Source: a bacterium (GTDB lineage Bacteria; CAIWAD01). Taken from it: a stretch of DNA of 21,822 nt. The stretch covers positions 1 through 21,822 of the forward strand of contig JAUXWS010000049.1 of NCBI GenBank assembly GCA_030685015.1, written 5' to 3'. Positions 1 to 10,208 of the stretch are shown piece by piece. The notes under the pieces are model-generated. The model did no database searches. It was not told where the DNA came from and saw only the letters and a list, made by a program, of their open reading frames with translations. The first letter of the stretch is position 1. Each line of letters starts with the position of its first letter. A program made the position numbers and the translations under genes.

Positions 1-159
1 GTTTCCCAGGCGACGAAACAGGCGACGGGTGGCATTCAGGTCGCCGGGCAATTGCTGGATCGTTGGGCGAACAGCCCCGGGTGCCAGGATGGCGGCGGTG
101 ATGGAATTCTGGTGGACATCCAGTCCCACCCACGTGGTGGAAGTGTTACTCTCATGCAT
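1..159 (-). CDS. IS110-family transposase, N-terminal fragment (runs off window)
   Basis: Read on the minus strand from an ATG at 159, the frame stays open for 53 codons to the window edge. It gives a start MHESNTSTTWVGLDVHQNSI, followed by ITAAILAPGA and a segment ending FRRLGN. The VGLDVHQ-x-S motif near residues 11-19 is the hallmark of the RuvC-like (DEDD) domain of IS110 transposases, and its Asp is the first acidic catalytic residue. A Shine-Dalgarno-like GGAG lies about 7 bases upstream of the ATG. The family are RNA-guided recombinases that use a bridge RNA encoded next to the gene. Only the N-terminus is visible, so whether the full element is intact cannot be told. Identification rests on the motif and start; confidence is good for family, nil for subgroup. 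Confidence 0.82.
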   Translation of the reverse strand, partial: MHESNTSTTWVGLDVHQNSITAAILAPGAVRPTIQQLPGDLNATRRLFRRLGN

Positions 160-164
160 GGCCG

Positions 165-337
165 GGCTCCTTACGTTTCTGGGCACTGCCCAGTGTGGCT
201 CTGGTCCCTCGTGGATCAACCCACGGCCAACGTAGGGACCCGGCCGTTCCATAAGGTCTAGTCCACCTTCGCCGTGCGCCTGTCATCGGATCGACGCCCG
301 TCCCTGGAGATGACAGCGGCTCCGGGGACGGGTTTTT
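165..337 (-). ncRNA. Candidate IS110 bridge RNA (structured 5' leader of the transposase)
   Basis: The ~175 bases directly upstream of the IS110 transposase start are packed with complementary segments. In plus coordinates they are 297-304 with 325-332 (8 perfect pairs, extended by 306-309 with 320-323), 253-257 with 265-269 inside 241-244 with 271-274, 203-209 with 234-240 enclosing 210-214 with 221-225, and 179-184 with 188-193. No coding frame is convincing here. In the IS110 group the bridge RNA (about 180 nt in IS621) is encoded between the left end and the recombinase gene and folds into a 5' stem-loop plus two looped guide domains. Size, position and hairpin number fit that plan. The ends given are estimates, and the target and donor guide loops are not assigned. 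Confidence 0.42.
297..337 (+). terminator. Hairpin plus T5, terminator-like on the plus strand
   Basis: CCCGTCCC (297-304) pairs perfectly with GGGACGGG (325-332). A T-G wobble and GGAG/CTCC (306-309, 320-323) extend the stem to 13 pairs with a 10-base loop, and TTTTT follows at 333-337. On the plus strand this has the form of an intrinsic terminator. It would stop transcripts running out of the insertion element towards ald, antisense to the transposase. On the minus strand the same stem would be the first hairpin of the candidate bridge RNA. Both readings are possible. Confidence 0.45.
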
Positions 338-741
338 GATAGGCGGGAAGGGCACATGGACGGAAACGCCAGGCATCCACCCCTGAAGCTTCCCGCTTCC
401 TGGAGAAAAGCTGATCATGACCTGATGGTCGAGGGCGGAGCTTGGCGCAGGGTCTCTGCCCCTCGCAAGCTTTGAGGCCCTGGACCATGGACGGGGCCGG
501 CCCAGGCCGCTTCCCGAAGCCGAGGCCATCGCAGGCGGAAGTGGACGCCCGATTCCCAATCCCGCGCAGGGCCGCCGCCTGATTCCCAGCCCTGCACCGG
601 CCATGGCCCCCCCCTGCCCAAGATCAGCTTTGCCCACGACGTGTTCGACTCCTCATGGATTGGCACGGCTTTTGAGTGGATGGACATGCCCCGTGCGGAC
701 TCGTGGGAAGGGTTGGGCGGGCAGCGAACAGGAGGAATACC
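338..741. other. Non-coding stretch between the IS110 end and ald
   Basis: Open frames cross this ~400 bp on the minus strand, but none has a ribosome site, recognisable protein or sensible start, so I treat it as non-coding. It should contain the left boundary of the IS110 element. IS110 elements lack long terminal inverted repeats, so the boundary cannot be placed by eye. A short hairpin is visible at 385-399 (GAAGC/GCTTC). The octamer GATTCCCA occurs twice, at 551-558 and 581-588. The sigma54-like site at 661-675 and the ald ribosome site at 730-735 lie at the right-hand end. Confidence 0.55.
661..675 (+). promoter_or_regulatory. Candidate sigma54 (-24/-12) promoter upstream of ald
   Basis: TGGCACG (661-667), four bases, then TTGA (672-675) matches the sigma54 consensus TGGCACG-N4-TTGC at all but the last base. 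The -24 GG is intact; the -12 GC reads GA, which is a serious mismatch. It would put transcription start near 687, about 55 bases before the ald start codon. No enhancer-binding-protein site was identified. Treat as a candidate only. Confidence 0.28.
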
Positions 742-1887
742 ATGCAATTCAGTCTGGCCAAAGAAGTCCGGCGCGGCGAACATCGGGTGGCCTTGACTCC
801 CAGCGGGGTCGGGCAGCTCATCGCCGCCGGGCAGGAGGTCTTCGTGCAGTCCGGCGCGGGCACCGCCTCCCATTTCACGGATCAGGAGTACCAGGACGTG
901 GGCGGCACCATCGTCTACACGCCGGAGGAGGCTTACGCCCGCGGTGAAGTCGTGGTCAAGGTGCTGCCACCCAAGGAGGAGGAGACGGAGCTGATCCGGG
1001 AGGATTGCTGTCTGGTCAGCTTCCTGCAGATCGCCGCCGGCCGGGACCGCCTGCTGGACACCCTGCTCAAGGAGAGGATCCTCGCCCTGGGCCTGGAGCT
1101 GGTCTCCCACCAGGATGGCCGCAAACCCCTGGTCACCGCCATGAGCGAGATCGCCGGCCAGCTGGCCATTCAATTCGGCGCCAACTACCTGCTCAGCGAC
1201 CATGGCGGCCGCGGCATCCTGCTGGGTTCCATTCCCGGCATCAGCGGCGCCACCGTGACCATTCTCGGCGCCGGCACGCTGGGCACCATGGCCGCCCGCA
1301 CGGCGCTGGGCATGGGCGCCCAGGTGGTCTTGCTGGACCGGGACATCTCGCAGCTTCGCAGGGCCGAGCACTCCCTGGGCCACGTGGCGACGATGATGGC
1401 CACGTCCAACAACATCCGTCGTGCCCTGGCCTTTGCCGACATCGCCATCGGCGCCGTCAGCCTCCCGGGGGACCGCACTCCCCATCTGGTCGACCGCGAG
1501 ATGGTGCGCGGCATGAAGGCCGGATCCGTCATCGTGGACACCTCGGTGGACATGGGCGGTTGCTTTGAGACCAGCCGCCCCACCACCATCGAGAGCCCCA
1601 CCTTCATCGCCGAGGACGTGGTCCATTGCTGCATTCCCAACCTGCCCAGCCTGGTCTGCCGCACCTCCAGCCGCGCCCTCTCGCACAGCATCGCGCCCTT
1701 GCTGCTCGAGATGGCCCGGGAGGGTGGCGCCATTCCTCTGCTGCGGCGCATCCAGGGCCTTCGAGACGGGGTGGTGACGATCGGGGGCCAGGTGACCAAC
1801 GCGCGGGTGGCGGAGCTCTACGGTCGCCCGCTGGGTGATCTGATGGCGGCCCTGGCCGCCCTGAGCGATAAGGAGGGCGGACGATGA
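742..1887 (+). CDS. Alanine dehydrogenase/PNT-family protein, Bacteroidota-like subfamily
   Basis: This 381-residue cytosolic protein belongs to the alanine dehydrogenase/transhydrogenase family. That family interconverts L-alanine and pyruvate with NAD(H), or in related branches acts on other amino-acid-like substrates. Start chosen at 742: AGGAGG lies at 730-735, six bases upstream, and the protein begins with the family pattern KEVRRGEHRVALTP. Arg15 (substrate carboxylate), Lys73 (equivalent of Lys75), the Rossmann motif GAGTLG (176-181) and Asp270 in DTSVDMGG are present. The catalytic His96 of characterised enzymes is Gln96 here (SFLQIAAG). The segments GGCFETS and VVHCCIPNLPS resemble, from memory, proteins annotated alanine dehydrogenase in Bacteroidota, which I recall also having Gln there. 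Its stop overlaps the next start (ATGA), so the two genes are probably translationally coupled. Family is secure; the reaction is not. Confidence 0.85.
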   Translation: MQFSLAKEVRRGEHRVALTPSGVGQLIAAGQEVFVQSGAGTASHFTDQEYQDVGGTIVYTPEEAYARGEVVVKVLPPKEEETELIREDCCLVSFLQIAAGRDRLLDTLLKERILALGLELVSHQDGRKPLVTAMSEIAGQLAIQFGANYLLSDHGGRGILLGSIPGISGATVTILGAGTLGTMAARTALGMGAQVVLLDRDISQLRRAEHSLGHVATMMATSNNIRRALAFADIAIGAVSLPGDRTPHLVDREMVRGMKAGSVIVDTSVDMGGCFETSRPTTIESPTFIAEDVVHCCIPNLPSLVCRTSSRALSHSIAPLLLEMAREGGAIPLLRRIQGLRDGVVTIGGQVTNARVAELYGRPLGDLMAALAALSDKEGGR

Positions 1888-7463: not shown

Positions 7464-10208
7464 TCAGAAGGAAGCGTAGACCCCGGTGCGTCCCTTGCGC
7501 TTGTCCCATTTGAGGTCTTCAAGCAGGTCGCTTTTCACCCGGATGAGCAGGTGGTAGGAGGAGCGGCGCGGATCCCAGGTGAAGTGCCCCTCCCAGCAGT
7601 GCATGTCGCGATAGACGTTGATGCTCTGCGAGGAGAAGCTGCGCGCCTCGAGGTCGTAGTGCAGGCCGCTGGACACCTTCCAGTGCCGGGCCAGATTGAG
7701 GCTGCCGCGCAGGTTGACGAGGCTGCGCTTGCTGGGATGGAGGGGGTTGCTCTTGTCCAGGCTCCAGGACCAGGTGGTGCTGAGGTCCCAGGGAATGCCG
7801 AGATCGGCGCTGCCGAAACGCGGCGAGAAACGGTTCTCCTCGTCGTCCGCCGGCACCGGCTCCGCCGCGGCGCGGCTCCGGCCCCCGCTGAAACGCGTGC
7901 TGACCGTGACGCTGGTGGAGGCCAGGCGGGGCAGGCGCCCATCCTGCCAGGCATAGCGGGCGATGCGCTGACCGGTGGCGGGATTCACCTGGTAGGGGCT
8001 GTGCACCGTGCTCATCTGCAGGTTGAGGCTGCCCAGGGGGCCCAGGCGCAGGCCGGCCGCCTGGAGCGGGTCCAGGGACCAGTTGCTGCTGATGTTGGAC
8101 AGCTTCATGCTGTCCAGCATGAAGTCATAGGACGTGGAGGTGGTCAGGCGCAGCAGGTCGCTCTTGACGGAACGGGGCGGGGGACGCCTTCCGCCTCCCG
8201 CCGGCGGGGAGCCTCCGCCCCCCAGGCTGTCATCGGCGGCGGGCTGGCGCGTGGTCCATTTGCTCTGCCAGAGCTGGCCCAGGGACATGTTGAGGGCCAG
8301 GCTCTCGCGCGAGGGCGTGGCGCCATAGATGGAGCTGCGGAAGCGGTCGAGCCGCAGGAGCAGGCTGTCGCCCTGGCGCGCCTCTTTCACGTAGCCCCAG
8401 CCGGAGGTCGAGAAATCCGGCGTCCAGGTGGCGGAGAGGGAGGGGCTGACCACATGGCGCAGGGCCTCCAGACCCCCCAGGCGCGGATAGACGATGCCGT
8501 AGAACTGGGTGGAGGCGGAGAGGCTCGTGTTGAAGGTCTGGCGCGCCGCGAAGCCGGAGCGGACCCGCGCATCAAGGGCGCCGTCGGGCCGCCGCGTCCA
8601 TTCACTCGTCTCGTCCACCCAGACGGAAGTGGCGTTGATGGAAGGAGTAAGGGCCAGGGCGCCCACCTTGCCGGGCACGGAGAATCCCAGGTTGTGGCGC
8701 GCCCCGCGCTGGCTCCGCGCCTGCCAGAGATCCAGGCCGTCCATCTCGTAACGGTTCTCCGCCCGGCTGGACAGCTTCAGGGTGGAACCGGCCAACCAGT
8801 CTCCCACCCCCGCCGCCGCTCCCGCTCCCGCTCCTGACGCGGAGGCCGTGCCGCGGGCGCCCCGCGAGCGGTCCGAAGCCAGCGAGCGCAGCGGAGTCCA
8901 GGTGGGGAAGCTCAGGTCCAGCACAGGCAGGCTGCCGCTGGTGATGCCTGTCTCCAGGTTCTGGTTGCCCGAGCCGTTCAAGGTCCAGCGCACCCCCTGG
9001 TCGGGAAAGAGACCGGAGAGACTGAGGTTGCTGGAAAGATTCTGGGTGAGGCGGATCTCCTGGTTGTCGCTGGTCTCCTGGTAGTATTGCTTGCTGGAGG
9101 CCAGCGCCACCTTGGAGCGAAGGCTGATGTAGGGCGTCAGCGCCTGGTCGTGGGACCAGCGCAGGTCCCAGCCCTCCCGCGAACTGGTGCGGGCCACGTT
9201 GTAGCTGCCCGACAGGCTGCCCCGGTCGGCCGCACGCCACTTGTAGCGCGTGATGCTCTCGAAGAGCCAGTCGGGACCCAGTTCGGCGTAGCTGAGCCGG
9301 AGCTGCGTGTCCCAGGTGTCGGCGGCGGCCCAGTACCAGCCCAGATGGTCCAGCTTGCGCCCCTGTTGTTCGGTCTGGCCGTAGCTGGGGAGGATCAGTC
9401 CGCTGGCGCGGCCCCGCTTCAGGCTGAAGAGGGCGACCGGCGAATAGAGGGTGGGGACCTGGCCGAAGTGCAGGGTCACGTCGCTGGCGAAGACACGGTC
9501 GCGCATCAACATCTTGAGCCGGCGAGCCTCGAAGTGGAAGTGGGGGCAATCCTCGTCGCAGGTGGTGAAGACGGCGTCGGACACGTGCATCTCGCGCGTG
9601 GCGACACGCTTGATGCGGGTGCCGCCGTAGAGGCTGAGATCCTCCGCCGCCCGCCCGTCCCGGATGAATCCCTGCCGCGTGTTGATGTCGAGGGACATCC
9701 ACCGCCCGTAAAGGACCTGGTTGCCGTCGCTGAAGACCGGCCAGGGCAGGCGGGCGTCCAGGGCCAGGGAGTCCGGCCGCTCCGGCGGACGGGGCGCCAC
9801 CCCCGTCCGGGCGTCCGCCCGTCCCGCCAGGCGTTGCCCTCCGCCCAGTCCCAGGTTGCCACCACAGCCTTCGGCCAGCGCTTCGTCGCCGGTGGACCAG
9901 GCCTCCACCCGGTCACGCTCCCAATCCACCAGGATCTCGGGGCTTTCCAGGGTCATGCCCAGGAAGGAGAGGCGGGATGAGCCGCTGAGCAGGGTGCGGC
10001 GACTTTGCACCTCCATGAAGAGGCTGTCCGCCGTGTAGGTGACGATGGAATCACGGGCCGGCGAGTAACCGCTGCCGACCAGGTAGTCGGCCGGGTTGAA
10101 GCTGGCCGCCCCGGCCGCGGGGGCCAGACCCGCGCTCAGCAGGAGAAGGCCCCACGCCGGCAGAACCGATCTCGTGGCAGCACGCTGCGATGGAGGCTGG
10201 CTGATCAT
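7464..10208 (-). CDS. lptD: LptD-like outer-membrane LPS assembly protein
   Basis: This 914-residue outer-membrane beta-barrel protein is of the LptD/OstA type, which inserts lipopolysaccharide into the outer leaflet with LptE and the Lpt bridge. A signal peptide covers about residues 1-35. The N-terminal OstA/LptA-like jelly roll contains VQSRRTLLSGSSRL and a Cys pair, Cys217 and Cys221, in TTCDEDCPHFHF. The barrel includes RHVVSPSLSATWTPDF, and the C-terminus carries RDMHCWEG (Cys871) and ends in Phe, as barrel beta-signals do. Separated cysteines suggest disulfides like those of E. coli LptD. The pattern resembles LptD of Bacteroidota relatives. Its ATG overlaps the cstA stop by one base (TGATG), with no good ribosome site, so translation is probably coupled. 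A low-complexity Gly/Ala insert lies near residues 456-475 and a Gly/Pro-rich one near 660-680. Confidence 0.82.
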   Translation of the reverse strand: MISQPPSQRAATRSVLPAWGLLLLSAGLAPAAGAASFNPADYLVGSGYSPARDSIVTYTADSLFMEVQSRRTLLSGSSRLSFLGMTLESPEILVDWERDRVEAWSTGDEALAEGCGGNLGLGGGQRLAGRADARTGVAPRPPERPDSLALDARLPWPVFSDGNQVLYGRWMSLDINTRQGFIRDGRAAEDLSLYGGTRIKRVATREMHVSDAVFTTCDEDCPHFHFEARRLKMLMRDRVFASDVTLHFGQVPTLYSPVALFSLKRGRASGLILPSYGQTEQQGRKLDHLGWYWAAADTWDTQLRLSYAELGPDWLFESITRYKWRAADRGSLSGSYNVARTSSREGWDLRWSHDQALTPYISLRSKVALASSKQYYQETSDNQEIRLTQNLSSNLSLSGLFPDQGVRWTLNGSGNQNLETGITSGSLPVLDLSFPTWTPLRSLASDRSRGARGTASASGAGAGAAAGVGDWLAGSTLKLSSRAENRYEMDGLDLWQARSQRGARHNLGFSVPGKVGALALTPSINATSVWVDETSEWTRRPDGALDARVRSGFAARQTFNTSLSASTQFYGIVYPRLGGLEALRHVVSPSLSATWTPDFSTSGWGYVKEARQGDSLLLRLDRFRSSIYGATPSRESLALNMSLGQLWQSKWTTRQPAADDSLGGGGSPPAGGGRRPPPRSVKSDLLRLTTSTSYDFMLDSMKLSNISSNWSLDPLQAAGLRLGPLGSLNLQMSTVHSPYQVNPATGQRIARYAWQDGRLPRLASTSVTVSTRFSGGRSRAAAEPVPADDEENRFSPRFGSADLGIPWDLSTTWSWSLDKSNPLHPSKRSLVNLRGSLNLARHWKVSSGLHYDLEARSFSSQSINVYRDMHCWEGHFTWDPRRSSYHLLIRVKSDLLEDLKWDKRKGRTGVYASF

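What the first reader, a model, noticed from the sequence alone, without database searches (positions are those of the whole stretch)
1..337. IS110 transposase start with an adjacent candidate bridge RNA
A 53-codon minus-strand fragment with VGLDVHQNSI marks an IS110-family recombinase. The ~175 bases upstream contain at least four hairpins. This is the place, size and style expected for a bridge RNA, which programs target and donor recognition in this family. If confirmed, it would be a new programmable recombinase/bridge RNA pair from a poorly sampled lineage.
Basis: partly seen in the sequence, partly recalled or inferred. Interest (0 to 1): 0.66.

Follow-up and report, generated by a model that had tools for sequence, protein, structure and literature searches.

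The report
RNA-guided transposon inserting at gene ends

Summary
The 53-codon IS110-family fragment (1-159, minus) is real. It is the start of a transposase in a multi-copy element that ends at base 258 (260 if the TA core is counted). Only about 100 nt of the element precede the gene. Those nt form a conserved stem over the transposase ribosome-binding site. The hairpin at 297-332 lies outside the element and is the displaced terminator of the target gene. So the upstream 'bridge RNA' is not there.

Relatives show an IS1111-type layout: 11-14 bp subterminal repeats, a short left end and a long right end. A two-loop ncRNA lies downstream of the gene; a covariance model finds it after the transposase in about 30 relatives. 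Its 5' loop strand matches each element's own target (6.6/8 cognate against 4.2/8 non-cognate; 0 of 100,000 permutations).

The clade's target is new to me. 11 of 14 scored right-end junctions (3 of 3 in this genome) sit exactly at the stop codon of a T9SS C-terminal-sorting-domain gene, and the element's right end supplies a replacement stop. A same-genus genome holds the empty site of this insertion.

The window element's own guide RNA is only partly assembled, so its guide is inferred. This is a new member of a known kind with an unusual target.

The parts
1..159 (-). first 53 codons of an IS110/IS1111-type DEDD transposase, cut by the contig end
   Evidence: 49-51% identical to P0003, 62% to P0004; full relatives carry PF01548 and PF02371
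160..258 (-). left end (5' leader) of the element, about 100 nt
   Evidence: boundary from five copies in the genome; aligned with the left ends of G003 and G029
160..245 (-). stem covering the Shine-Dalgarno AAGGAG (168-173) and the start: + strand arms 160-175 and 230-245
   Evidence: compensatory changes in three outer-stem pairs across 3 elements; 16 elements: 180 start-region pairs against 65 in shuffles, maximum 101
240..253 (.). left subterminal inverted repeat (CCGGCCGTTCCATA on +)
   Evidence: partial counterpart GGCCGTTCCATA in right-end contigs C18 and C33; perfect 14-bp pair in G003
254..258 (.). left terminal extension AGGTC; with core TA (259-260) it is 7 bp, as in IS1111
   Evidence: the 7 bp/3 bp rule is from PMC11187229
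259..261 (+). TAG: remnant of the stop codon of the target T9SS sorting-domain gene, whose body is on contig C33
   Evidence: empty site in G002: GTG AAG TAA; C33 right-end junction GTG AAG|TGATATGG; ortholog match
297..340 (+). intrinsic terminator of the target gene, now separated from it by the element; not part of the element
   Evidence: 13-nt arms 297-309/320-332, 92% complementary, then TTTTT; G002 has a terminator-like hairpin between its intact sorting-domain gene and the same downstream gene
742..1887 (+). alanine dehydrogenase/transhydrogenase-like gene used as synteny anchor
   Evidence: PF05222 and PF01262; 86% identical in G002

Best explanation
The window holds the left end of an IS1111-type insertion sequence of the IS110 family. 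The element works by a bridge/seek RNA made from the long right end, downstream of the transposase. In that RNA, the 5' strand of the first internal loop (about nt 14-21) pairs with the target core plus 6 nt. In this clade that target is the last codons plus the first two bases of the stop codon of T9SS C-terminal-sorting-domain genes (such as CTGAAG followed by TA or TG). The recombinase then inserts a circular element between the last sense codon and the stop. The element's right end (CCATATCA) supplies a new TGA, so the host protein is unchanged; the old stop and terminator are left on the far side, next to the left end. The many near-identical gene ends (93 sorting domains in this genome) act as a multi-copy landing site. 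The upstream hairpins hide the transposase start from read-through transcripts. Shown by sequence: ends, target, RNA position, RNA conservation, guide-target match in relatives, empty site. Inferred: recombination chemistry (from published IS1111/IS110 work), the window element's own guide, and the function of the leader stem.
For: Ends and copies. Right-end junctions in this genome at C18, C33 and C60, all TIGR04183 genes. Same-genus empty site; C33 is the other side of this insertion (G002 gene 68% identical to the C33 gene, next best 36%). Full relatives G003 and G029 (62% identical to G003, other phylum). Six more sorting-domain insertions in G029's phylum. Subterminal repeats and a long right end. 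ncRNA with two internal loops, found downstream in relatives. Guide-target test 6.57 against 4.22 of 8, 0 of 100,000; sorting-domain-only subset p=0.006.
Against: The main body of the window element is missing from the assembly; only the last ~24 positions of its RNA (in C33, 20 bits) and a truncated sibling (C60) are seen. The left target guide is weakly supported (p=0.03). Donor-loop pairing is not resolved beyond an AUAUCA match to the right end. Three of 14 junctions are not at sorting-domain genes (L235, L236, L245), and L236's guide does not fit its site. Transposases of 369-370 aa are longer than the 330-350 aa given for IS1111. No expression data.
Confidence: 0.87

Rival explanations
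1. One reading: an IS110-type element with its bridge RNA in the ~175 nt upstream of the transposase (160-337).
For: Strong folding of 160-260; position expected for the IS110 subgroup (PMC11208160).
Against: Element ends at 258/260, leaving ~100 nt; last hairpin is outside; no target match in the left end (p=0.28); the leader stem pairs over the start codon; the conserved ncRNA is downstream; no Rfam or R1 hit.
Confidence: 0.03
2. Insertion at sorting-domain gene ends comes from chance, from assembly artefacts at repeats, or from a protein-directed preference rather than the RNA guide.
For: Contigs break at the element; sorting-domain genes are repeated and break assemblies too.
Against: C60 in this genome, and G003, G029 and several relatives, have the junction inside a contig; junctions fall exactly at the stop codon in 11 of 14; guide and target vary together (AAA/AAG, G/C, TA/TG); more distant relatives with other guides hit other targets with 8/8 matches.
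Confidence: 0.06
3. Dead remnant: the window copy and its siblings are no longer mobile.
For: C60 is truncated and has an altered repeat; no complete copy is in the assembly.
Against: Five left ends are near-identical (99-100%) at unrelated sites with an intact reading frame as far as seen, as expected of recent spread.
Confidence: 0.15

Closest known systems
IS1111 group of the IS110 family (ISEc11, ISKpn4, ISPa11; seekRNA, PMC11187229)
   Same: Subterminal inverted repeats; 7 bp left and 3 bp right extensions; short left and long right end; ncRNA downstream; top-strand guide 5' in the RNA; GL-P----SG motif; no target duplication seen.
   Different: Transposase 369-370 aa rather than 330-350; target is the stop-codon end of T9SS sorting-domain genes instead of attC, REP or others named there.
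ISSfr2 and ISSso6 (IS110-like elements, L181 and L182)
   Same: About 41% identical transposases; same downstream RNA found by R1 (54 bits); same end layout.
   Different: Other guides and other targets.
IS621 bridge RNA system (IS110 group, PMC11208160)
   Same: DEDD recombinase with a two-loop RNA whose guides include the core dinucleotide.
   Different: RNA upstream, long left end, only 2-3 bp subterminal repeats.

Membership tests
IS110 family (DEDD recombinase) | DEDD N-domain and Transposase_20 C-domain | tested here: met
   PF01548 and PF02371 in relatives P0003 and P0004, NF033542; the window itself has only the first 53 codons
IS1111 group | perfect or near-perfect subterminal inverted repeats of about 11-13 bp | tested here: met
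   14 bp in G003, 11 bp in G029, 12-14 bp in others; GGCCGTTCCATA shared by both ends in this genome
IS1111 group | 7 bp left and 3 bp right terminal extensions | tested here: met
   TAGACCT|TATGG and CCATA|TCA; holds if the TA core is counted with the element
IS1111 group | long non-coding region with the guide RNA downstream of the gene | tested here: met
   R1 hits after the CDS in about 30 relatives
IS1111 group | guide to the top strand lies 5' of the guide to the bottom strand | tested here: met
   top-strand guide at RNA nt 14-21, p<5e-5; the 3' (left) guide is only weakly supported
IS1111 group | transposase 330-350 aa aligning with IS1111 over its full length | tested here: inconclusive
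   369-370 aa; GL-P----SG motif present; no tree with named IS1111 members was built
IS110 group (IS621-like) | bridge RNA in a long left end | tested here: not met
   left end about 100 nt, no guide match
Bridge/seek RNA system | RNA bound by the transposase and needed for transposition | not testable with these tools
   needs expression and assay

The most novel reading that the evidence does not exclude
A clade of IS1111-type elements in at least two phyla uses its guide RNA to insert exactly before the stop codon of T9SS sorting-domain genes. Each insertion restores a stop codon and uses a large host gene family as a renewable harmless landing site, while moving the gene's terminator to the far side of the element.
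Probability: 0.85. Interest if true: 0.6.

Novelty: new member of a known kind. Interest (0 to 1): 0.5.

Why it matters
The mechanism is known; what appears new is the target. Natural RNA guides aimed at the coding end of a large gene family, with the stop codon rebuilt by the element's own right end, would be a clean example of how a guide-directed transposon avoids harming its host. It would also give natural guide variants (TA or TG stop, AAG or AAA codon, G or C before it) for testing guide rules. The conserved leader stem is a separate, testable control on transposase translation. A search of the held open papers found nothing on this target; that library is incomplete.

Tried and rejected
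Upstream bridge RNA: rejected (boundary at 258/260, no guide match, no model hit). C58 IS110-type gene as the missing body: rejected (25% identical to P0003; the window's left-end DNA has no match there). Right ends by the largest shared contig-end clusters: those were other repeats; the right ends were found through the subterminal repeat instead. Pfam on the 53-residue fragment: no transposase family. Close relatives in IMG/VR: none; plasmid DNA match: none. Fine pairing of the donor loop: tried by eye, matches inconsistent, left open. Reading the right-end TGA as a special adaptation: weakened, because relatives with other targets also end in ATCA.

Full report
What is in the window. The minus-strand frame at 159-1 encodes 53 residues of an IS110-family transposase. 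The same DNA occurs at the ends of four other contigs of this genome, and all five copies share ...CCATAAGGTCTA and then diverge. The window therefore starts inside a multi-copy element that ends at base 258, or 260 with a TA core. The element contributes only about 100 nt upstream of the gene.

What the hairpins are. In 160-258, bases just before the start codon pair with bases just inside the subterminal repeat. Aligned with two full relatives, the outer stem keeps its pairs through compensatory changes. Over 16 elements the 15 nt before the start make 180 pairs with the first 40 nt, against a mean of 65 and a maximum of 101 in shuffles. The natural reading is a stem that hides the ribosome-binding site from transcripts entering from outside; that function is inferred. 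The hairpin at 297-332 followed by TTTTT lies in the flank.

The other end. No close copy of the body is in the assembly. Class relative G003 has a complete element: 369-aa transposase, perfect 14-bp subterminal repeats, about 100 nt upstream and 250 nt downstream of the gene. With its repeat as a probe, right ends were found on contigs C18 and C33, and a truncated copy with a complete downstream region inside C60. A 62% identical transposase (to G003's) with the same layout is in G029, from another phylum.

The target. The right-end junctions at C18, C33, C60, G003 and G029 each fall exactly after the last sense codon of a gene ending in a T9SS type A sorting domain (TIGR04183). In a same-genus genome, G002, the gene preceding the same alanine-dehydrogenase-like gene is an intact sorting-domain gene ending GTG AAG TAA, followed by a terminator-like hairpin. 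Its best match in the sequence held from the window's genome is the C33 gene (68% identity; next 36%). So C33 and the window flank one insertion, and 297-332 is the terminator of the interrupted unit. The protein is not changed, because the right end supplies TGA. The genome has 93 sorting-domain matches, most of those inspected ending AAG TAA or AAG TAG.

Generality. Searching G029's phylum gave further elements at 55-87% identity. Six more have their right end exactly at a sorting-domain stop, making 11 of 14 junctions scored. Of the other three, L245 has a guide that matches its different site 8/8, L235 matches 6/8 beside a very short frame, and L236 does not match. Relatives with other targets also end in ATCA, so the restored stop is probably a lucky property of the right end rather than something evolved for this target.

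The RNA. The downstream region of G003, G029 and C60 holds a 128-130 nt stretch, 87% identical on average, that folds into two stem-loops with internal loops. A covariance model from these three finds it downstream of the gene in about 30 relatives, including ISSso6 and ISSfr2, mostly at E 1e-6 to 1e-22, and finds nothing in the window. With ends set by the subterminal repeats, the reverse complement of core plus 6 nt of right target was compared with the RNA. The match starts at nt 14-16 of the RNA, 6.69 of 8 for the element's own target against 4.47 for others' (0 of 20,000 permutations). In 23 elements it is 6.57 against 4.22 (0 of 100,000), and within the sorting-domain group alone p=0.006. 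The same test on the upstream 100 nt gives p=0.28. The left guide is weak (p=0.03), in keeping with variable left flanks. I set the element ends by hand from the repeats and aligned guides without gaps; related elements are not independent, though keeping one element per distinct target octamer gives the same result.

Class. The features stated for IS1111 (PMC11187229) are met: subterminal repeats, 7/3 extensions, downstream RNA, top-strand guide first, GL-P----SG motif. Transposase length is outside the stated range and no tree with named members was made.

Limits. The window element's own guide is not in the assembly; it is inferred from its targets, the last 24 positions of its RNA in C33, a sibling and relatives. 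No step of the reaction was observed.

Noticed in passing
C58:20681-21559 (L006/L007): A second, distant intact IS110-family transposase (373 aa, about 25% identical to P0003), single copy; R1 does not find the downstream RNA beside it.
   Followed up: partly
L179:1391-1830 (C60): Truncated sibling element with a changed right repeat (TATGGTGCC) but a conserved complete guide RNA carrying a different guide (CTCAAGTA) and a near-matching site (ACCAAG).
   Followed up: yes
L237 and L245: Elements whose right end supplies TAG instead of TGA and whose guides end in TG; L245 has an 8/8 guide match to a site that is not a sorting-domain gene, a natural retargeting.
   Followed up: partly
right ends of C33, C60, G003, G029: A TTGAC hexamer near the right end points towards the left end, as for a promoter formed when the ends join in a circle.
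   Followed up: no
contig ends C28, C29, C32, C35 of this genome: A repeat of about 170 bp with terminal inverted repeats (AGCAGCCTGTCGGGCTTGG), probably a small non-autonomous element.
   Followed up: no
contig ends C16, C57, C65, C69, C104 of this genome: Another multi-copy element ending in GGATAAGCTCT, unrelated to the IS110-type one.
   Followed up: no
window 10051-10134: ARAGORN calls a selenocysteine tRNA inside long open frames; Rfam does not support it, so it is probably false.
   Followed up: no
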